Positions 590-13,024 of a DNA stretch of 13,553 nt are shown here, piece after piece (the stretch's first letter is position 1; the number at the start of each line of letters is the position of its first letter). The notes beneath the pieces are model-generated. The model was not told where the DNA came from. It saw only the letters and a list, made by a program, of their open reading frames with translations, and did no database searches. This stretch comes from Thalassiosira profunda (taxonomy: Eukaryota; Bacillariophyta; Thalassiosirophyceae; Thalassiosirales; Thalassiosiraceae), in the NCBI GenBank assembly GCA_036939355.1, contig JALLAP010002388.1, positions 1 to 13,553 on the forward strand, read 5' to 3'. The position numbers and the translations under genes are program-made.

Positions 590-3500
590 CTAGTCACGAA
601 ATTGTGTGCAAGTGGCGAGTGTACCCGCACCTTCTGGCGGAGGATCTCCACAGTACGACGCCCTCTTGATTGCTGCCTGAATGCCTGGCCCGACGCCTCC
701 CTGCGGCACCTGACACCATCCTTGGTTACTGAAAGAGGTTGGTTGGTGAGACGAGACAGCATGTGATTGATTAGGCACAATGCCAAGACAAGCATTTCTC
801 ACCAAAGGTTTTGTCTCGCCTCGAATCTATTTGTGCCGTATGTGTTGTGGAGGAAAGCGATCCGCTGATAACAATTGAAGCTGCTGAACTTCCACTGCAG
901 CGCCGACGTGAGCACCCGAGAACGAGCAAAGAAGCCGCAGCCGAAAGCAAAAGTGTACGTACCGTGCAGTAGCCACAAAAGTTGCAGGGCAACCCGCGGA
1001 TCTGCGCCGTCATCTCTGCCTCAGTAACTTCCCGGCAAGGATACGTGCCCCCGCCGTCTGGGAGAGGAAAGTCTTGCAAAGAACAGGCGTTCGGTTCGTT
1101 GACAAGCTGATTGGCAGGGTAGGGGCATAAGATGAGCGACGTCTTGGAACGCAAATATCACGCAAATGATCTCTGATCACACCTATCACACCTGACAACT
1201 CAGATGTTGGACAATGTCTTCCTGCAGGTCGGTCAAAAACCCAAAGCCGTCCACATTGAACACCTTTCCATCGCTGCTGATTCCTTGCAGATAAGACTGA
1301 TTGGCGGACAGCGTTGAATTTGGCTCTGTGATCACCACGGGAACAATCACCATTCCCTCGCCTTTGGCTTCGCTCGCCGCCACCTCGGCAGCTTCCTGCG
1401 GCGCTCCTTCTGGCAAGGATGGATCACTGTCCGTGATCAAAAGTATCAGGTCCGTCGTGTCCCCATCATTAGACCGGAGGGTAGAAGCGCATGCAGAAAT
1501 TNTCCGTGATCAAAAGTATCAGGTCCGTCGTGTCCCCATCATTAGACCGGAGGGTAGAAGCGCATGCAGAAATTGCGTCGGCGTGGTTGGTTCTGCCACC
1601 TGTGTACACGAGGTCGTCCAACGCATTCAAAGCGTCGTCCGAAGAGCCAAGAGACAGTGACACGCCAGCCCCAGACCCAAACCCAACGACCGAATAGGAC
1701 TGATCCACCGGGAGGGACCCGAGGGACATCACGACCAACTGCGCGAACTCCGTCAGAGAGAGGAAGTTTGTGCAACAATTCTCCTTGACGACGCCAGCCT
1801 CATTGCAAATCAGCGGCGGATCGCATTCCTCACAGAAAAATCCTGTTCCTTGATTGCAAACGCTCCCGCTCATGTCGATGGCAAAGCACAGGCTGAAATC
1901 TTGATAGACCGAATCATCAATGCAGGTGGGGTTCTGCGTGGGAGATTCTGTGGTTATGAACCTCACAGGTGGGCTCGTCAAGGGCGCCACAGGACTCCCT
2001 ATGGGCGACGTCGACGGTGCCGGCGTTACAAGACTCTGCGTTGGCCCCACACTGGGCTCGTTCGTCGGCCGTTTCGATGGACTAGATGTCGTGGCAAGCG
2101 CCAGCTCGCCGATGGATCCCGTTGCGCCGATGGACCCTGTTTCTCTGGCGGGAGAAGTTGTTGGCATGCCTGTAGATGGTTTCGCAGTTGGAGACTGCAC
2201 GGGCGCATCGGTGGGCGGAGGGTCAGCAGTGGGCGAAGGATTAGCAATGGGCAGAGGGCCACAAGACGACGCCCTTTCTATCGCCGCTTGGACTTCCGGC
2301 CCGACGCCTCCCTGCGGCACTTGACACCAGCCTTGGTTGCAAAGATTTTGTCGCGCCGTTAATTGCCCGACTTGGTACGTGTTGTATAAGAAAGAGACTC
2401 GCTGATAGCAGTTAAATGATGGCCCTCCCTCCCACTGACAGTGTCCGCAGAACTTGCAATCGAGACCGATGATCAGTCCTGCCATTTCGGCCTGTGCGAG
2501 TACATCTGGCGTGAGCAACAAGGCAAGTCTAAAGCAGTAAGATGCAGCTTAGTGATTGCACTCACCTCGATGACCTCTCGGCAAGGGTAGATGCCTCCAT
2601 CAGGAGGAAGGACAATGTTCGTGGAAGGCGGCAGCGGAGATTGGGTGGTTGGCTTGTTGGTAAGAACGATTGATGGAGTCGAACCCACGGCTAGAGATTC
2701 AGGACTCGGGCAGGGTACCAAACTTGTTCCAAAGGTCGTTGTAAGCTCGTCAAAGCTCAGGCTGACAGTGCCACCCTCCTCTCCCTCTTTGCCCTGGGGC
2801 CAATCGCCCCGCACGACAACAATGTCATCGTAGGTTGCGACGAACGTTTCGGGTGCGAAGCCGCAGCACGAGGCCCCTCCCCTGATGATTGGCTCTACCT
2901 CGAAGATATACTCCTTGTCATTTGAGAGGCATCCGTTGAAATAATTGGGGCCGCCACTTGCTGCAATCTCAGTCCCCAACAATTGTGGCGCACTGACTGG
3001 AGGGCTCGTCGTCGGAGCGTCTGTATCCAAATCTCTGTCCTGCACGCGCTTGCCGCAAAAATGATTGGCCAACGTGACCACACCGGAAATCTCCCCAACA
3101 CCCGCCACCGCCTCGCCAGTGTTGACCTGATCCAACGCGTCGCTTCCCCCCAGCACCCCCTCGTCGTACAGACATCGACATTCCTTTATGGCGCAGTTGA
3201 AGTCAAAGCCCCGGAATGAGTCGCTCAACGCAAGGATTTCTGGTGGATCTTGAACGCACCGCTCCGCGCAGTCGCCAAAGTCAGTGGCGCTGATCTTGAG
3301 CCACTCGTATCGGCGTCCCCGGCTGTCGATGCACGCACCACTGCCGAAGGAGTTGACGTGCAGATTGAAGCGGAATCGTTCGCTGCCGCGCCTGGGACGC
3401 GGCCTCGTTGTCTCCCCAATGCAAACTTCGTCAAAGGAAAGGGTGCTGGTTGCAGTCGGTGCAGGAGTGGCGACCTCCTCGAACAAAGACGAGGATTGGC

Positions 3501-4717
3501 TGTTCACTTCGGCGCAGGTCGGACATCGCAGCACCACATCGCCCGTGCACGCGTCCTTCACCGTCCAGGTGTGCTGGCTATTCTCCGGCGGGTTCAGCCC
3601 GCGTTGCAACACGAACATTGTTTCGTCTGCAGGACATTCGCCGGGCCGCGGTGGCGGTACCAGTACTTGGAATGCCGAGGTGGGAGATGCTGTTGGGGTT
3701 GTAATCTCTTCGCTGCCAATACCACCTCCATCGACGGCCTTGCTGCTGTCTTCGTCGGACTGGTCGCCGCCCAACAGCACGCCGAGCACGATGGCGATGA
3801 TTGCCACAATCACGAGCAGGAGCAAGAGAAGCAGGCATCTTTTCTTCTTCTTTTTCTGATCCTCCTCCGATGCCTTTTCCGCCTCTTCATCAGGCACAGC
3901 CGCAGGCTCTTCCGCCGTCTGCCCTTCCACAGCTAAAACTGCAGGCGTCGCCTTGGCCCCGAGTTTCACCTCCTCCCATTCCGTAGTACTCGTTTGGTCC
4001 TCTACGTCCACCGCCTCCTTCACGTCCGGCTTCGCATCTTCTCCCTCCACCAGCTCATCCACATCCACCCCCTTCTTGCGCGCAAAGCTCCCCTCAAACG
4101 TCTCTTCGGTGGTGTCCCCTCCCTCTCGAATCTTCAGCTTGCCCACGCTTCGCAGTTCCTTCGGCTTGGCATCTTCGGGCTCGTGCTCAATTTCCGCCAC
4201 CTGCTCTTGGACGTGCTCCACGTTGTGGGCCTCGGAGGGCCTCAATTTGGGCTCGTACTTGCCCACCAATTCCGACGCTTCCTTGCCTAAAAACGAAGAT
4301 GGTGCATGCCAGTGCACATTGTGTGAGATGCAATTCTCATTTGCAACATATCTCATACTCATAGAACTGCAATGATACGCCTGCAGTTTGTGCATCATCA
4401 GACATCGCAAATCACTCACCCTTCACGACACTCCCCGCGGCGAACGAGGAGTACCCCTGTGTCTTTTTCGCCGACTCGATGAACCGCCACCGCGGGGCCT
4501 GGGGCGCCGAGAAGCGCTTCGGGCTGCCCGCCTCCTTCCCCGGTTGGTCCCCGCTGCCGGCGGCCGCGCTGGCGTCGGCGGCCGACGCGATGGCGACCCG
4601 TTCGGAGGCCGAGATGTCCCGCCCCGCGGAGGTCCCGAGGGCGTCGGAGGGAGGGCCCGCATCCTCCGCCGCGGGGGGTTTGCCGGGCTCGGCGTCGGTG
4701 GCTGGCGTCTCGCTCAT
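590..4717 (-). CDS. single-pass membrane protein with PAN/Apple-like region, VWA domain and twin Cys-rich modules
   Basis: Six exons are read by eye: 4717-4420, 4286-2566, 2491-1192, 1106-963, 894-803 and 728-590. All introns are GT-AG, and 73 bp in exon 3 are discounted as an assembly duplicate. The total is 3621 nt, or 1206 residues. Residues 1-249 are acidic and presumably cytoplasmic. KKKKKR then precedes a membrane span at about 250-272, giving an N-in topology. Outside follow a PAN/Apple-like Cys-rich region (about 414-510), Cys-rich module 1 (662-751), a Pro/Thr linker, a VWA domain (about 870-1080) and Cys-rich module 2 (1099-1188). The VWA metal site is complete: DMSGS at 879-883, T974 and D1003. 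VWA domains bind protein ligands through a divalent metal, so a surface adhesion role is inferred. The ATG at 4717 is chosen because no earlier in-frame ATG is seen. The frames agree at every junction, and the E|AEM junction is confirmed by the intron-free equivalent in module 2. Confidence 0.8.
647..1058 (-). repeat. Cys-rich module, copy 2 (coding)
   Basis: Residues 1099-1188 of the VWA protein, spread over exons 4-6. The introns are 895-962 (donor gtacgt) and 729-802 (donor gtgaga). Splicing restores CGYC-T-W and ARQNL-C-NQGW, which line up residue by residue with copy 1. This supports both the intron calls and an internal duplication. It lies after the VWA domain and close to the C-terminus. 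Confidence 0.8.
1430..1574. other. 72-bp duplication around one N (scaffold-join artefact)
   Basis: Bases 1430-1501 and 1503-1574 are the same 72 bp, separated by a single N at 1502. The duplicate breaks the VWA frame just before the conserved metal-binding Asp. Discounting 73 bp rejoins ...LILLIT with DSDPSL..., which is exactly what a VWA domain needs. The pattern of two overlapping contig ends left unmerged fits better than a biological tandem repeat. Confidence 0.9.
2258..2601 (-). repeat. Cys-rich module, copy 1 (coding)
   Basis: Residues 662-751 of the VWA protein, interrupted by an intron at 2492-2565. Conserved landmarks shared with copy 2 are DGG-x-YPCREV-x-EAEM, C-x-FCG-x-C, SFNCYQR, the run NT then Y, ARQNLCNQGWCQVPQGGVGP and ASxCG. 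Eight or more cysteines are conserved, suggesting a disulfide-stabilised extracellular fold. I do not recognise a named family. Confidence 0.8.
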
Positions 4718-4939
4718 GTTCTCGGGCTGTTCAATCAGCGATCCTACGTCCAACTGTTACGGCACTGCACCCCACCTCGCCATTTGCAACTCAGCTTGCC
4801 TCAAACAATCCGAAGGATCGTGTGAAGGGGTGAGAGGAAGCCCCAAGCAGAGAGGAGTGAGGGTGAGGGTGAAGGAAGGCGCGCGATTTTCCCGCCTCTT
4901 TTGACTCCTACGTAAGAAAATCTACGAAGGAACCCTTAC
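4718..4939. promoter_or_regulatory. divergent promoter region, VWA-gene side
   Basis: This 222-bp stretch lies between the VWA-gene ATG and transposon copy 1. It contains a purine-rich tract on the plus strand (about 4824-4880, repeated GTGAGG and GAAGG units) followed by TTTTCCCGCC at 4888-4897, which resembles an E2F-type site (TTTSSCGC). No TATA box is evident. Promoter function is inferred from position only. Confidence 0.4.
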
Positions 4940-5230
4940 CACTGCTGGTAATAAATGTGTTTTGAGCCACTCTTCGAAACGCTTGCTTCGCCTAACAACG
5001 GGTTTCGAAATTCAAACCGCCCGTGGTATGCGGCTCGAAGCCGTCTCGCCCTCAATGCTCGCTCAACGCCCCGATTCGGAGCCAACCACCCACAGCAACC
5101 TTCTCTCCCATGCCAGGGCCAACTCCCGCGCGCTTGGTGGCGTCGAAATCGGACCGCAACTGGCCGAGAACGCTTGATTTCCGGTTCAAAACACATTTAT
5201 TTCCCAAAACACATTTGTTCCCAGCGCTAG
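4940..5230 (+). mobile_element. non-autonomous TIR DNA transposon (MITE-like), copy 1
   Basis: A 291-bp element is flanked by a perfect 5-bp target duplication, CTTAC at 4935-4939 and at 5231-5235. The ends are imperfect inverted repeats. The left end starts CACTGCTGG and continues AATAAATGTGTTTTGAG. The right end, read inward, starts CTAGCGCTGG and continues AACAAATGTGTTTTG, then repeats the AATAAATGTGTTTTG block. No transposase is encoded. The small frames on both strands simply start at the ATG inside the terminal AAATGTGTTTTG block. The 291 bp match 12590-12880 in reverse complement with no difference that I can find. The superfamily is not assigned. A 5-bp duplication is known for Transib and for some hAT elements. 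Confidence 0.88.
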
Positions 5231-5313
5231 CTTACCAAACTTTGGCCGGATCATTTTTGCCGCTCCCGCCCCCTCGAGCAGGCGCTCGCCGCGCTTCGCC
5301 CAGTCCGCAAATC
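5231..5313 (+). promoter_or_regulatory. leader region of the K+ channel gene
   Basis: Only 83 bp separate the transposon end from the channel ATG, and the first five are the target duplication. The stretch is C-rich and stays open in the channel reading frame. The ATG at 5314 has A at -3, a favourable context. The original promoter was probably pushed 291 bp or more upstream by the insertion, unless the transposon itself supplies a start site. Confidence 0.4.
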
Positions 5314-7054
5314 ATGAGCTTCTTCACGCGGGCCCCGCACACCCCCGCAGAGCGGTCGGTCAGCACCCGCGTCCTCCTCCGGGCCGAGGAAGAGGCGCTG
5401 ATCGCGGAGGCCGCCAAACTGAGCGCCGACGACGAATCATCGTCATGCGATGCATCCGGCACGCGCCGAAGCCTGTCGCAGTCCGGGCCACCGGCGCCGA
5501 TGCAGCGCCTCGTGGCCCGCGATCTGCCCTTCCATCAATCGTCGAACTCGCTGCGGGTGCGGCACCAGGCCTCCGACCGGACGAAGCACCACCAGCACGC
5601 GCTGATATTTCCATTGAGATTTTTCCACTGGTATATTGAGGATTGGTTCCACGTGCTGCTGCGGCTGCGCACACTCGTCTCCGTGGTCATGCTGGTGGCG
5701 GTGTGGACGTGCTTTCTGCTGATATTCGCGGCGATATACAGGGGCATTGATCTAAATGAGCCAGATGTGGACTGTGGGCTGGGCAATCCGGGAGAACCAA
5801 TTGGCTTTCACGGGGCTTTTGCCTTCTCTTTGGAGACTACCACGACTGTCGGGTACGGGCTGCCCAACGGCTCGAATGGATTCTTTGAGGCGTGCCCCGA
5901 ATTGCAAGTCGCCATCTACTTCCAAATGCTGTGAGTTAGAATTGAACAGGAGATGCACACTGTCTTGTGTTGGCCCGTTTTTGCTCAATCAGCGAGTGAT
6001 TAATGTCTTCAATCTCTTTAGCATCTCGATGTTCTTCAACGCCTTCTTGCTCTCATTTATGTTTGCGAGATTGGCCCGATGCGAGGCCCGGGCGGCGCAG
6101 GTTCTGTTCTCTGACAAGGCCATCATCAATCGCGAGGTACTGCCGAATGGGATTGTGCGATACATGCTCTCGGCGAGAGTGTACGATGCCGACAGCATGT
6201 ATCCAATCGTCGAGGCGCATGTCAGATTCTACGCGGTGAAGCATAGATCGATGCACTGTGACGAGAACCGGGGAGTGAGGTATCCGCTGAAATTCGAGCC
6301 AATGCGTGTCTCAATACCAAACGATGACCTGGGAGCTGTGCTGTACACGTCAATACCAACGCGAGCGATGCACCACATTGATTACCATTCTCCGATATTG
6401 CCACCGTCGATTCGGAAGCTCGGACCGGAGGATGGGAGAGTGAAGGGAGATTTCGCCATGCATCCTTGTGGTTTGAGTCTGCGAGAAAACGACAGCTACA
6501 CCGGTGCCCAGGATGGATTACGCTGTGTGATTTGTGGAGAAACGTATGGCACTGCTGCAAATCTCGTTCAGCACATTCGATACAATCAACACATGGAGAA
6601 GCACGACGATGTGCCGGTTGCTGGCTCGCATCAGGAGCTGGACGTCGACGCCCTCTTCAAGGATAGGAGGCCTTCCCGGAAGATTGCGAGGCTGCACAAA
6701 GACGAAGGCTCGGACAAGCGGATAGACATTGACAAACCAGCCTCGCCTTGGTATCAAGAGTACGAACAATACATGCGAGAGTCGAACCTCGAGATCATCT
6801 GCGTCATGGAGGCCATCGACCCGATTATGAGTGGCACGTTCGGAGCTTGCCAGTCATACACAATGGACGACATCATCTTCGACGCCGAATTCGCTCCGTG
6901 CGTCCTATCTGATCCAGTCACAAAGCAGAGCCAGCTTAGATTGAGATGCACTCGATGGCTGCGGAGGATATTCGTCGGTCGGAGCGCCGTTGGACGCTCC
7001 GTAAAGGTGGATCTCGACACGTTTCATGAAACGGTCAAGGTTGGGGAAGGCTAA
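5314..7054 (+). CDS. inward-rectifier (Kir-type) potassium channel with inserted C2H2 zinc finger
   Basis: Two exons, 5314-5930 and 6022-7054, flank a 91-bp intron (donor gtgagt, acceptor ctttag) and encode 549 residues. The order is a cytoplasmic N-terminus; slide helix and first membrane span (about 105-141); pore loop with filter TTTTVGYG (175-182); second span (about 197-222) with Asn212 at the Kir rectification position; and a C-terminal immunoglobulin-like domain containing IVEAHVRFYA and, later, LEIICVMEAIDP. C154 and C194 fit the conserved extracellular disulfide pair. Kir channels are tetramers that set membrane potential. Asn rather than Asp at the rectification site predicts weak rectification, by analogy with Kir1.1. 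Unusually, about 110 residues (337-450) interrupt the cytoplasmic domain and include C374-x2-C377-x12-H390-x5-H396. An in-frame ATG at 5110, inside the transposon, could add 68 residues. Confidence 0.9.
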
Positions 7055-7186
7055 GTGCACGTGTAGGCGAATTGTGAGCCTCCGTCAGAAAGAAGAGATG
7101 ATGAATTTACGCCCTACACACAGCAACCACAGAAGAATCCCCAACCTGAAATGAAGCTGCCCAGTGCAGCTTCAAGTAAACGTTGC
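7055..7186. other. convergent intergenic region with a 9-bp hairpin
   Basis: A 132-bp gap separates the stop codons of the channel gene and the large minus-strand gene. It carries a perfect inverted repeat: TGAAGCTGC at 7152-7160, five-base loop, GCAGCTTCA at 7166-7174. This would form the same hairpin in either transcript's 3' UTR. No AATAAA is visible. A role in 3'-end formation is possible but not shown. Confidence 0.5.
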
Positions 7187-10100
7187 TCAAGATGAGCTGA
7201 AGTACGCATGCACCCGCCGGGCCATCATGGCGAAGAGAAGAGTAATCACCAACAACGGCTGAGACTGCACAGTGCAACGAGGAATTCTCTTTGGCGCATT
7301 GCTGCTGGGTTCATTCGAATCGCTCTCTTCGTCCTCCTCCTCCGCCACCACGTGCTCTTTCCCAAAATAAACGTCGTGGAATAGAACCGGCCCGGGACTG
7401 GCTAAGACGAGAGAGCTCAACTCCAGCCCGGACTGAACAGAGGCATTGTCATCCAAACCGTAGTACACGCCATAAAAGTGGACAGGTTCAGACTCGTCAA
7501 CACTGTCTCGTTCCTCCTCCATCACGTGCTCTTTCCCAAAGTAGACGTCGTGAAACGAAATCGTGTGCGGAATGGGGACGAGCGAAAGCAACTCGTGCTC
7601 GGCTTGAGCAAAGGAGCAGTTGTCGTCTAGTCCAAATTGAACCCCGTAAAATGGTTGTTGACAGATGGACTCGGCTTCGTCGTCACTGCCTTCCGCAAGA
7701 GCCGCCGCTCCAAACAACACGTCAAAGAACGGCTGAGACTCATCTGGTTCCACCATTTGGTGCACAAGCAAAGAGCTTGGTTGCTGACACAACTGGTCTG
7801 ACGAGCAACTTCCACCCTGACCGAACAGAGCATCGAAGAAGGGCTGCTGCGTGGTCGAGCCAGGTTCTTCTGCATCAGCTCCAAAGTCACTTTCAAAGGA
7901 CACTGAAGCCCCGCCGATGGAGAGAACGCTGCCCTCGTCGTTCGCAACACCAGCCGCTGCGCCTTCGCCCTCGAGGTTCTCCACGCCGAGATCTTCACCA
8001 TTAGCTAGCCCAGCCCCAGTTGGAGGCACAGAAGTAGCCAATCCAGAGGCTCTGCTCGCCTCGTTCCGGCCGCCTCCGACAACGCGATCCAACTCGAACT
8101 TATCACGCGTGCGCCGGCTGCTCTTTTTCGCAGTGCTCTTCGAGCGAACAGATTGGTTGGTTTTGGTCCGTGTGATTTGAAGTGCATCGCGACGACGCAG
8201 AGAAAGCCGGCTAGGATTCAATGTCTGGCAGGGCGCTCGTGCGTTTTGAGACTCGTTGGCCTCGCCGGGCGTGGAGCGCTTCGATGATTTGTCACTGGCG
8301 CCGCTCTTGCGGCGATCACGCGATAGCGATGTCCTCTTTGCCTCGCCTGCCTTCTCCTTCGCCGGCTCGAGCTTGATGACAGTTTCTTCGAAAAGACCTG
8401 CAATGCCCACTTTCCTTGGTTTCTTCCTCGATGTCGAAGGCGCACTGCCGACAGTCTCTCTTGTTCTCTTCTTCGCAGCGCCCCGCTGGTCGAATGAATC
8501 AGAGGCCCTGCGACCAGATTTTGCGATAGACGCCTTCTTGCGCAAGGGGGGCTCACTTTTTTGTCCTTTCAGACGCCGCGTGGTAATCACTTCCGAAGGA
8601 GATGCCGTGCTGCGACTGAGGCTGAGCCTGCTTCCACGCTTTGTCGTGTCGCGTTTCTGTGTGATGTCTGCGCCACTCTGCCTGCGGCGAGCATCGCTTC
8701 CTCGGCGAGACTTGACGAGCGGTTCGATGCTATCGTCGTCGAGCACAATGCTTCGCCTCTTCCTTTGCTGCGCAGTCTTGGCAGATCGACGCCCGTCATT
8801 TTTGGTATCTTTGGGTTTGCTCTCGGCACGGGGCAGTTCGAGCTGAGTGCTCTTGCGGCTCTTCTCAAAGTCGCCGTAGGCATCCACGAGCGACGGTTCG
8901 TCGGCTGGACTGGTTTCGAGCGCGTCTTCGTTGGCCTTGTCTTCAACGGGCTCCTCGTCTTCCAGCTTGTTCTTAGTTTCGTCGCCAAACCGGTCACCGC
9001 CCGAAGCTGCAAATGAAACATCTTCCAGCATTCCGTCTCGACCTTTGTCGCCAGCATCTTTCATCGTGGCGTGCTGGTCTGCAGTAGTGTCGACAGGCTC
9101 GGCTCCCACCTCCCCGGGAGCGGACGCTTCCACTTCTGCCTCGGATGGAAGCTGATCTTGCAACTTTGCCGCTTCCTCCTCCTGTTCGTCGATGGATGGC
9201 GCGTCATCTCTTTGCACTGCCTCTCCGTCGCGTGCACTCGCTGGCACACCGTCTGCCCTGTCTGCGTCTCCGCCATTGCCCTCGCCAACGGCAGACTCTT
9301 GAACCGGCCCCAATTTCCCTCCGCCAGCGTATCTCGGCGCGTTCCTCCTGAGCCAGCGCTCCATCGACAGCCCGACGTTCGAGCCGACGCGACGCTGGTG
9401 TTCCGACAACAGCGACTTCGTCAGGCCAAGGGACTGCGTCGACGAGCTTCGCCGCGCCCTGGGCTTCCGGAAGAGAACGTCGATTGCCGTCACGCGAAAC
9501 TGGTTATCGTGGGACATCAGGAATGAATAGTCGGCGTCGAAGCCCAGCTTGCACGGAATTAGCACGCCAGCGACATCGCGCTGCTCTCCGTACATCTTGA
9601 GCAATTGATCGCGCCTCGTTTCGGCACCGATCCTCGACGGAGGGCGACACCCCGCCAGCATCGCCTCGGACGCATCCTTGCCCTCGATCACGCCCACGGA
9701 CGAGGACGTGAACCCCCCAAACGCGGCGATTGACACGCAGCCAATGTGATAGGAGTCATTCAGCACCTTCTCCTCTTCTTCGTCGCAGTATTCTTCCTCC
9801 TCGTCCCTGAAAACGCCCTGCTTGACGAACGACNAGCACCTTCTCCTCTTCTTCGTCGCAGTATTCTTCCTCCTCGTCCCTGAAAACGCCCTGCTTGACG
9901 AACGACAGGACGCGGTTGATCGAGGGGTCGAAGAGCGAGACGACGTTCCCGTTCGGGTGGGCCTTGCGGCTGGCGTAGAAGTCTTCGAGTGGCGTCGATG
10001 GCGCATGGTTGTGTCGGAGGGAGATGCGGAGGGAGCTGAGCGCCCCGCCATTTGCACTGCCTGCTGGAGAGGCGTCGTCGTCGAGGACGAGTGCCTCCCA

Positions 10101-12342
10101 CTTGCCGGGCATGACGGACCCGGGAAGCTCCACGATGCGGCCGCGATGGGGCAGGGCCCCTCCCTTCTCCACTTCCTCTGTGCAGGATGAAACACAGTGG
10201 TGTGAGACGTGGACGAAATCAGAGATGCATGCAAAAGACCTGACGAACTTACCCACGCCACCTCCCATTCCTTCGATGAGGCCGAAGTGCTTCCTGTCCT
10301 GGTACGCGCCACCCTCGTCTTGATCGAACGCGGGGACGAAGAACTGGACGGCGTTCGTCGCCGTCGCCGTTCCACTCTCGACCGAGCTCTTTGACAACGC
10401 AGACGTGGGATGGGAGAGCTTGCGCCTCTTGCGAGACGACTTGGAGCCGCGAAGGCCTCCGAGGGCGGCACCTTTGGATGCTGCTTGGAAGATATGAGGT
10501 GCAGTACGATTGGTGAGGGGAACAGTAGTGCGTGAGAAAGGCTCAAGTAGTGCGAGCGTGGACTTACCCCTCCCGTCTCCCTCCTGACCGCGGCCGGCAG
10601 TGTTGGACCGATCGCCGAGCACCCTCCTCTCCTTCTTGGGCTTCTCCGCCGACCCCAGGGTATCGACGAAGGTGAACCCATCGACATCGGCGCTCGTCTC
10701 CAAATCGCCCCGGCCGAGCCTGTTGGCGCGAGGCGAGGCGGCCTTGTCCTCCGTCTTGGCGCGCGCAAAGACGCCCTCGAACGTGGGGAGCCGCGACGAT
10801 CGCTTCCCCTTGGGCCTCTGGGGCCTTTCCTCGACCTCCATCGCCGACAAATCGAAGCTGGGCTTGCTGCTGGCCCGCGATCGGGACATCGATCGAGATC
10901 GGGACCTCGATCTCGCGTCGGCGCTCGCCTCCGATCCGTCCGAGCTCCGCTCCTCCTCCTCTTCGTGCTGCATGAGCTGCGTCGCGGCCTTCTCCCGGCG
11001 CCGGCGCGCGGCGTACTCCCGAATCGTGCCCGCGTTGGTCAATCCCCGAAACTGGCACGCGTCGCCCTCCTGGCCCTCCTCTCCATCGCCGCCCTCCGAG
11101 ATGTCCGAGAGGCGGCGCTTCTTCTCGCTCGTCCGGCGCGCCAGCCCGTCGTGCGTGGGCTTCGTTCTCGTCGATTCCGCCCCGCCCCGGGCGCCCGTGC
11201 GCCTCCTCCTCCCTTGAATGGCGCCCTCGCCTCCCTTCTTCGAGCTGGTCCTGCCCTTTCTCGAGGCTGTCGTGGCCCGCTGCCGCTGCGTCTCGGTCGA
11301 TTCCAAACCGTCCCGAGGGCGGCTCTTGCGGCCTCCCCTCGCGTGGGTATCTTTCTCCTCCTTCAACTCCTCCACGGTCCGGCCACCGTAGCTCACCTCG
11401 CTGCTGGGCTGCAAATCGTCCCCGCCCTCTTCATCGTGGTAGATGTCGAAATCACCGGCGATACCCCTCCCCTCCCCCGCCCGGCGCGGCAGCTGTGGCA
11501 CCCCCGCCGCCGGACGTGCGGCGCCCCGCCCCCCTCGCGGCGCCCCGGCGGCCAATGCCCCGGCGGCCCTCCCTCCCCCTTGCCCTCCCCGCCACGCCGT
11601 CCGCTCCCATCTCCCCTCGCGAGACCGAGTCCCCATGTTCGGAGAGCAGCGCCGACGACAATTTGCTCTCCTCGTCGCTGTAGATGCCGCCCATGTCCGC
11701 CGTCGCCCGGGCCGTGCTCCCCACGCTCGAGGTGGAGCTCGAGGCGGAGCTCGAGGCGGAGGACGGTCCTGCCCCCCCTCCCCCGCTGCCCCTCCCCTTG
11801 CCCCTGCTCGCGCCCTGCTTGCGCGAGCCCCGCCCTCTCCCACGCTCCTCATCCTCAGCCGCCATGGGAGCCTCCCCAGCCGACCGATCGCGAGCACCAA
11901 CAGTGCGAGCACCCGCCGGCCTATACTTCTTGGCCGTGGCCGGGGAGAGGGAGCTCAGTCCCGTGTTCCCCCCTCCCCCACGTCCAATGACGCCCCCCCT
12001 CCCGGCGTTCCCGGGGGTCTTGGCATGTTTCGCGTCCGCCACGAGACGAGCAATGCCCTCCCTGGCCTTGGATTTGCTCCCCTCGCCCCCCTCGCCGCCC
12101 GTGATGCCCGTGATGCCCTTGCGACCACCCTTGTCAGCGTCGCCTGGGGCTTGGGGATTGTTGGTGGCGGTAGTGCCGTCGGGCACGGACACGTTGCGGG
12201 GCACCCGCCGCTCGTTTCGGACGAGGGAGCCGACGCGGGGATCGTACGACGAGGCGCGCTTCCCGAAGGCCTTGCGCTTTCGCTGCCGGGATTGCTGGTC
12301 CTTCTTCGCCCCGGCCGCCCTGCCTTCTCCGGAGGTCGTCAT
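7187..12342 (-). CDS. large, mostly disordered, probably nuclear protein with C-terminal FxxVxFG repeats; function unknown
   Basis: I do not recognise this protein. The model has four exons: 12342-11596, 11492-10568, 10483-10253 and 10177-7187. Discounting 73 bp of assembly duplicate gives 4821 nt, about 1606 residues. The ATG at 12342 follows an A-rich leader. Residues 1-440 are Gly/Arg/Ser-rich with Lys-Arg clusters such as KRKAFGKR and EKKRR. An SR run lies at about 443-455. Residues about 600-840 have normal composition and may fold (FFVPAFDQ, HFGLIEGMGGG, GCVSIAAFGGF). A long Lys/Arg/Ser/Glu region with many NLS-like clusters follows. The tail has three repeats and a hydrophobic tip (PLLVITLLFAMMA). 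A nuclear or chromatin role is inferred from composition alone. The first intron (donor gtggcg) is the weakest call: a GC donor at 11583 also keeps frame, and a sequencing indel is possible. Confidence 0.65.
7310..7905 (-). repeat. three-fold ~58-residue repeat carrying paired F-x-x-V-x-F-G motifs (coding)
   Basis: Six motif copies occur: QPFFDALFG, QPFFDVLFG, QPFYGVQFG, ISFHDVYFG, VHFYGVYYG and VLFHDVYFG, with a degenerate seventh (VSFESDFG) just upstream. They pair into three units, each an A motif, a Ser/Leu linker, a B motif and an acidic run. The last two units are close to identical in their motifs (FYGV-x-x-GLDDN, then FHDVYFGKEHV) and share an exact 18-bp DNA repeat at 7349-7366 and 7523-7540, 174 bp apart. 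This indicates a fairly recent in-frame duplication. Confidence 0.85.
9762..9906. other. 72-bp duplication around one N (scaffold-join artefact)
   Basis: Bases 9762-9833 and 9835-9906 are the same 72 bp, with one N at 9834. Read on the minus strand, the segment encodes FVKQGVFRDEEEEYCDEEEE twice, and the second copy falls out of frame with the first. Discounting 73 bp joins the upstream and downstream parts of the large minus-strand gene in one frame. The duplicate length is identical to the one at 1430-1574. Confidence 0.9.
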
Positions 12343-12589
12343 TTAATTTTTCCCTGGACCGTTGATGGATGGATTGAGTCGGGCGGTCGTAGGGACCGAG
12401 CCAGCCGCCAACCAGCCAGGGACAGCCGCCGCCTCCAACCCGGGCCAACCGAGGTGTGGGGGTACGAGCTGCGTCTCTGGGAGGGGGGCGCCGGTGGACC
12501 AGAGGAGCCGCGTTGCTTGCTTTGTTGGTCGCTTTGGGTTCTCTCTTCCCCTCCAAGCGCAAAAATGACCGTCACGTGACGAAAGATAT
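12343..12589. promoter_or_regulatory. divergent promoter region, large-gene side, with a CACGTG palindrome
   Basis: This 247-bp stretch lies upstream of the large minus-strand gene, bounded by transposon copy 2. It contains a perfect 12-bp palindrome, CGTCACGTGACG at 12570-12581, four bases from the transposon-side target duplication. CACGTG is the G-box/E-box core bound by bHLH and some bZIP factors. The start codon is preceded by AAAATTAA. No TATA box or coding frame is seen. Confidence 0.5.
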
Positions 12590-12880
12590 CTAGCGCTGGG
12601 AACAAATGTGTTTTGGGAAATAAATGTGTTTTGAACCGGAAATCAAGCGTTCTCGGCCAGTTGCGGTCCGATTTCGACGCCACCAAGCGCGCGGGAGTTG
12701 GCCCTGGCATGGGAGAGAAGGTTGCTGTGGGTGGTTGGCTCCGAATCGGGGCGTTGAGCGAGCATTGAGGGCGAGACGGCTTCGAGCCGCATACCACGGG
12801 CGGTTTGAATTTCGAAACCCGTTGTTAGGCGAAGCAAGCGTTTCGAAGAGTGGCTCAAAACACATTTATTACCAGCAGTG
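12590..12880 (-). mobile_element. non-autonomous TIR DNA transposon (MITE-like), copy 2
   Basis: The reverse complement of the element at 4940-5230, 291 bp, with no mismatch seen. It has its own 5-bp target duplication, GATAT at 12585-12589 and at 12881-12885. The different duplication shows an independent insertion event. Identity with copy 1 means both moved recently or were homogenised. It encodes no transposase. Confidence 0.88.
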
Positions 12881-13024
12881 GATATTTCACGTATGTAATT
12901 TCACGTGATTTTGAGTTTGGGCTTCTTTGTTGGTGAAGCGCGCGTCGTCGACACCCCGCCGAAGAAGAACCAAGCCGACGCGGCCCTCTACATACACCGC
13001 CACAGCAGCGTCGAACGGCCCACC
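12881..13024 (+). promoter_or_regulatory. promoter and leader of the right-hand gene, with two TCACGT boxes
   Basis: Just right of the transposon are two ATTTCACGT-like units, with TCACGT at 12887-12892 and TCACGTGA at 12901-12908, in direct repeat 14 bp apart. With the palindrome at 12570-12581 on the other side, they would have formed one compact three-box cluster before insertion. The rest of the leader is GC-rich and ends CCCACC directly before the ATG, a strong start context. Confidence 0.5.

What the first reader, a model, noticed from the sequence alone, without database searches (positions are those of the whole stretch)
4940..12880. Two identical 291-bp MITE-like elements in inverse orientation, each with its own 5-bp target duplication
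4940-5230 and 12590-12880 are perfect reverse complements as far as I can read. The flanks are CTTAC/CTTAC and GATAT/GATAT, so these are two separate insertions, not one large element. Zero divergence implies very recent movement, so a source of transposase is probably still in this genome. Both copies lie in divergent promoters.
Basis: seen in the sequence. Interest (0 to 1): 0.75.

Follow-up and report, generated by a model that had tools for sequence, protein, structure and literature searches.

The report
Low-copy MITE family in a diatom

Summary
The repeat is real: 4939-5230 (+) and 12590-12881 (-) are identical over 292 bp in inverse orientation. The genome search found five complete copies (two here, C170, C65, C686), one match cut by a contig end after 54 bp (C508) and one bare terminus (C969); counts are lower bounds. 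All five complete copies have matching 4-bp flanks: CTTA, ATAT, GAGA, TTCT, TTTT. The fifth base matches in 4 of 5. The two ends align without gap only with the 292-bp reading (C686 22 of 24, against 8 of 24 one base off). The C170 copy lies in the last codons of a fumarylacetoacetate-hydrolase-family ORF; the collapsed site reads ...CEFVMGEPE, the C-terminus of the Thalassiosira profunda relative. Best reading: a MITE-type non-autonomous element of a thalassiosiroid diatom, moved by a transposase from elsewhere. No longer element with these ends was found, but C508 and C969 run off or near contig ends, so the inferred transposase source is neither shown nor excluded. Superfamily unassigned. 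A core of about 133 bp is shared with two loci that have different ends. New family of a known kind; low interest.

The parts
4939..5230 (+). copy 1 of the 292-bp element
4935..4938 (.). 4-bp target duplication CTTA, left of copy 1
5231..5234 (.). 4-bp target duplication CTTA, right of copy 1
4939..4962 (+). terminal inverted repeat, end A (CCACTGCTGGTAATAAATGTGTTT) of copy 1; holds TAATAA and AATAAA
5207..5230 (-). terminal inverted repeat, end B (CTAGCGCTGGGAACAAATGTGTTT) of copy 1
5187..5201 (-). second, inner repeat of the end motif (AATAAATGTGTTTTG) next to end B
5041..5173 (+). 133-bp core shared with C476 (87%) and, over 135 bp, with C1196 (86%), which have different ends; no coding signal
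12590..12881 (-). copy 2 of the 292-bp element, inverse orientation, identical to copy 1
12586..12589 (.). 4-bp target duplication ATAT, left of copy 2
12882..12885 (.). 4-bp target duplication ATAT, right of copy 2
12590..12613 (+). terminal inverted repeat, end B of copy 2
12858..12881 (-). terminal inverted repeat, end A of copy 2
12647..12779 (-). 133-bp core in copy 2

Best explanation
A low-copy MITE-type element: a 292-bp non-autonomous cut-and-paste DNA transposon with imperfect terminal inverted repeats (C[CT]A[CG][TC]GCTGG[TG]AA[TC]AAATGTGTTT) and no sign of coding capacity, inserting at varied sites and duplicating 4 bp of target. Shown: ends, flanking duplications, copies found, near-identity of four complete copies, a derived insertion in one gene's last codons. 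Inferred: that a transposase encoded elsewhere recognises the end motif (doubled at end B) and moves the element; its superfamily is not known from these data.
For: Five of five complete copies have matching 4-bp flanks of different sequence. Ends pair 22 of 24 without gap in the older copy C686 and 21 of 26 in the young copies; shifting end A by one base gives 8 of 24 in both. Three copies identical, C65 with 2 differences in 292, C686 86%. C170: collapsed site gives ...CEFVMGEPE, identical to the C-terminus of the best-scoring relative P0121 (T. profunda), while the filled site gives ...CEFVMGDHCW. No Rfam match for 4700-5500; no third-position bias in the core; no protein relative at E <= 0.1 of the 91-aa ORF inside the element. 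The end motif occurs in the assembly only in these copies, C508 and C969, with 0 matches to the reversed control patterns.
Against: Few copies for a MITE (five complete, one cut, one bare end; lower bounds). No autonomous partner with these ends found. The fifth flanking base matches in 4 of 5, more than expected if it is only chance. The ends of the young copies match in only 21 of 26. Identity among copies could be inflated by assembly.
Confidence: 0.92

Rival explanations
1. The element has 291 bp and makes 5-bp duplications, as first read, e.g. by a Transib-like transposase (5-bp duplications and CAC-type ends of Transib are recalled).
For: Four of five complete copies have a matching fifth base, and end A reads CACTG after its first C. 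The collapsed C170 site does not decide: 292+4 and 291+5 remove the same 296 bp. One of the 120 listed hydrolase relatives ends GDPE, the reading that a GAGAC target would give.
Against: C170 has GAGAC against GAGAG. The ends align 22 of 24 in C686 with the C included and 8 of 24 without it. C969 has the same C before CACTG. 20 of the 120 listed relatives, the best one among them, end GEPE, the reading of a GAGAG target.
Confidence: 0.07
2. Solo long terminal repeats of a retrotransposon.
For: 292 bp with a short duplication is in the range of some solo LTRs (recalled).
Against: Ends are CC...AG with inverted repeats of over 20 bp, not TG...CA. Ten chosen frames of the window gave no retroelement domain in Pfam. 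I ran no genome-wide search for retroelements.
Confidence: 0.02
3. Identical copies are an assembly artefact (one repeat unit placed twice).
For: The contig has two places where identical 72-mers flank a single N (1430-1574 and 9762-9906), which shows imperfect joining; contig C508 ends inside a match.
Against: The two Ns, at 1502 and 9834, are not at the element borders; the flanks and duplications of the copies differ, so the insertions are separate. The zero divergence could still be inflated.
Confidence: 0.03
4. Introner-type element that makes introns: end A carries GTAATAA and, in inverse, TTATTACCAG, which resemble splice sites (resemblance recalled).
For: Motifs visible at the ends.
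Against: No copy was shown to lie in an intron; in C170 the element adds a stop codon to the ORF. No RNA data were available.
Confidence: 0.04

Closest known systems
MITEs in general
   Same: under 500 bp, terminal inverted repeats, target duplications (passages of PMC10741241), no sign of coding capacity
   Different: few copies found here; parent transposon not found
Sola DNA transposons
   Same: 4-bp target duplications and variable termini (passages of PMC10741241); Sola is listed in the diatom Cyclotella cryptica (PMC7466962 section 17)
   Different: no Sola transposase was searched for; the link rests on duplication length only
Chapaev (CMC) DNA transposons
   Same: 3-4 bp target duplications (passages of PMC4079192)
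   Different: Chapaev ends are given as invariably 5'-CAC...GTG-3'; here CC...AG
piggyBac
   Same: 4-bp duplication; piggyBac-type transposase domains occur in this genome on C924 and C628
   Different: piggyBac duplicates TTAA (passages of PMC9587614); none of 5 targets here is TTAA
Kolobok and KolobokP
   Same: 4-bp duplications; solo repeats of KolobokP with 3-5 bp duplications (passages of PMC9587614)
   Different: Kolobok ends are 5'-RR...YY-3' and its target is TTAA; here CC...AG

Membership tests
MITE | short, non-coding | tested here: met
   292 bp; core without third-position bias; 91-aa ORF without relatives at E <= 0.1
MITE | terminal inverted repeats | tested here: met
MITE | target site duplication of constant length | tested here: met
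   4 bp in 5 of 5 complete copies
MITE | many homogeneous copies (typical, not required) | tested here: inconclusive
   five complete copies, one cut, one bare end; lower bound in a fragmented assembly
MITE | related autonomous element with the same ends | tested here: inconclusive
   none seen at up to 3 mismatches in 24 nt or with a gapped pattern; C508 is cut after 54 bp, and C969 has one end with its contig ending about 0.9 kb behind it
Chapaev | CAC...GTG termini | tested here: not met
   rule from passages of PMC4079192
piggyBac | TTAA target | tested here: not met
   0 of 5 targets; rule from passages of PMC9587614
Kolobok | 5'-RR...YY-3' termini and TTAA target | tested here: not met
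   rule from passages of PMC9587614
Sola | 4-bp duplication | tested here: met
   rule from passages of PMC10741241
Sola | Sola transposase with the same ends | not tested
   no model of it was searched
Ginger | TG...CA ends | tested here: not met
   rule from passages of PMC10741241
Mutator | 8-11 bp duplications (recalled) | tested here: not met
   4 bp; blastn of the element against the four fetched MULE loci gave no hit better than E = 1.0; the ends of those MULE loci were not determined

The most novel reading that the evidence does not exclude
The roughly 133-bp core, itself part of an imperfect fold-back, is a module carried by short elements with different ends (the 292-bp family, and the C476/C1196 pair); and the ends, which hold an inward-reading AATAAA on both sides and TAATAA on end A, let the element land in gene ends as a ready-made stop and poly(A) cassette, as it has supplied the stop in C170.
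Probability: 0.12. Interest if true: 0.4.

Novelty: new member of a known kind. Interest (0 to 1): 0.18.

Why it matters
It documents a young, low-copy MITE family in a thalassiosiroid diatom and one clean insertion in the last codons of a gene that swaps three residues for four and supplies a new stop. The sites could serve as polymorphism markers, and the ends as a handle to recognise the parent transposon in a fuller assembly. It changes no general idea.

Tried and rejected
Autonomous partner: end patterns searched three ways. C969 was followed because it carries one end. Directly behind that end lies a tandem repeat of about 205 bp, then a second repeat that also occurs inside C999 and at the ends of C1237, C791, C608, C980 and C544. 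I read C969 as a bare end, but its contig stops about 0.9 kb behind the end, so a longer element is not excluded; nor is it at C508. MULE transposase domains: six matches, four over the cut-off (C46, C74, C178, C186); those four were fetched and showed no similarity to the element better than E = 1.0; inverted repeats there were listed but none was recognised as its ends (the five longest per locus shown). EnSpm-type PF02992: no match, but the control rang nowhere either, so no conclusion. PiggyBac PF13843: two matches; not linked, since targets are not TTAA. Sola, Ginger and other 4-bp superfamilies were not searched as proteins.

Core as captured gene fragment: not supported. In the frame open in all four sequences on the plus strand, differences by codon position are 43, 31, 28; one search had one sequence misaligned by a base and is discarded. 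Exact 21-nt end and 23-nt core patterns in viral contigs: 0 matches each. Rfam: 0 matches in 4700-5500.

Literature: searches. I saw the listings, passages of PMC4079192, PMC9587614 and PMC10741241, and passages plus the whole of section 17 of PMC7466962. No paper in those listings was seen to describe this family; most listed papers were not opened.

Changed after checking: the rival 5-bp reading was raised from 0.05 to 0.07, because the collapsed C170 site cannot by itself tell 4 from 5 bp and one listed relative ends GDPE.

Full report
What is in the window. One search gives a pair of perfect inverted arms, 4939-5230 and 12590-12881, 292 nt; one search confirms that they are exact reverse complements.

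Copies. A search of the assembly (21.8 Mb, 1366 contigs) with the 292 bp gave nine matches. Five are complete: the two of the window, C170 (identical), C65 (2 differences) and C686 (86%). C508 matches 54 of 54 bases up to its contig end. C476 and C1196 match only in the core (133 and 135 bp), and C590 in about 41 bp. A search with the 15-nt end motif, up to 1 mismatch, gave 18 matches: 15 in the five complete copies, 2 in C508, 1 in C969; the reversed control gave none. The 24-nt end pattern with up to 3 mismatches gave 11 matches: 10 in the five complete copies and 1 in C508; control none. A gapped pattern gave six: end A of the five complete copies, and C969; control none. The tool says that its counts are lower bounds.

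Duplication length. Oriented with end A first, the flanks are CTTA/CTTA, ATAT/ATAT, GAGA/GAGA, TTCT/TTCT and TTTT/TTTT, five of five. The next base agrees in four of five: in those the right flank starts with C, which is also the base before CACTG in every copy; in C170 the flank has G. With that C included the two ends align without gap (C686 22 of 24, young copies 19 of 24 and 21 of 26); without it they match in 8 of 24. So the element is best read as 292 bp with a 4-bp duplication. That four of five targets are followed by C is more than chance would favour and may be a target preference; I did not test it.

A gene-level check. In C170 the element lies in a fumarylacetoacetate-hydrolase-family ORF (the listed relatives carry PF01557). 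As found, the ORF ends CEFVMGDHCW and two stops, the stops coming from the element's TAATAA. With one copy of GAGA and no element it ends CEFVMGEPE. The best relative, from T. profunda (82% identity), ends CEFVMGEPE. Of the 120 relatives listed (8000 scored), 20 end GEPE, 1 of them CEFVMGEPE, and 1 ends GDPE. This shows that the insertion is derived and that it added 296 bp in all. It does not by itself separate 292+4 from 291+5; the GEPE ending favours a GAGAG target and so the former, the one GDPE ending shows that this is not strict.

Host. A PRP38-family protein from contig C980 has its first named matches in Thalassiosira (67 and 69%; most listed matches bear no species name), and the hydrolase from C170 has its best match in T. 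profunda. The host is thus inferred to be a thalassiosiroid diatom from two proteins on two contigs.

Place of the copies. Both window copies and C65 lie between ORFs that point apart; C170 lies in the last codons of an ORF; C686 lies beside a stretch whose frames read as repeated peptides; C508 is at a contig end. So three of five complete copies lie between divergent ORFs; gene starts were not confirmed by transcripts or homology. By my arithmetic, two of six copies within 7.7 kb in 21.8 Mb would be met by chance in about 1% of cases (15 pairs x 2 x 7651 / 21.8 million). This hints at local hopping, but it was noticed after the fact, because the window was chosen for the pair.

Inside. The end motif is doubled at end B. 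Read inward, end A holds TAATAA (position 11) and AATAAA (12), end B of the young copies AATAAA (30), end B of C686 also TAATAA. As single-stranded DNA the element folds better than all 200 shuffles (z -3.4). The core is shared with C476 and C1196, which match each other over 209 bp (90%) and have other ends; C1196 holds a second, inverted, diverged part of the core. I have no tested explanation for the sharing; nested insertion, or a common ancestor with exchanged ends, are both open. Coding was tested and not supported.

Mechanism. Shown: discrete ends, duplications of constant length, several sites, a derived insertion. Inferred: cut-and-paste by a transposase acting in trans. Superfamily: a 4-bp duplication without fixed target fits Sola best among those whose rules I read, but this is a lead only; no Sola protein was searched. 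Chapaev, Ginger, Kolobok and piggyBac each fail a stated rule.

Verdict. Real, correctly recognised in kind, off by one base in length and most likely in the duplication; a transposase source was not found, and is not excluded.

Noticed in passing
window 1430-1574 and 9762-9906: Two places where identical 72-mers flank a single N, at 1502 and 9834; they look like overlapping contig ends joined without merging, and would shift a reading frame across them (73 bp).
   Followed up: partly
L003 (C170) 1783-1792: Element inserted in the last codons of a fumarylacetoacetate-hydrolase-family ORF, swapping the last residues EPE for DHCW and supplying the stop.
   Followed up: yes
L006 1429-1637 and L007 1498-1706: Two loci share the core plus about 70 bp with other flanks (TACCAGTC...ACTGGTTTGT); perhaps a second short element family.
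   Followed up: partly
L017 1530-2362; C999, C1237, C791, C608, C980, C544: Tandem repeats of about 205 bp (C969) and 176 bp (C999); a repeat near the end of C969 recurs inside C999 and at the ends of five other contigs, so it probably breaks the assembly.
   Followed up: partly
C46, C74, C178, C186; C924, C628: Open frames with MULE (four over cut-off) and piggyBac-type (two over cut-off) transposase domains.
   Followed up: partly
window 5314-7054: Inward-rectifier potassium channel domains (IRK, IRK_C) in two different frames, as in a gene with an intron; a C2H2-finger match before the IRK_C part is below the family's cut-off.
   Followed up: no
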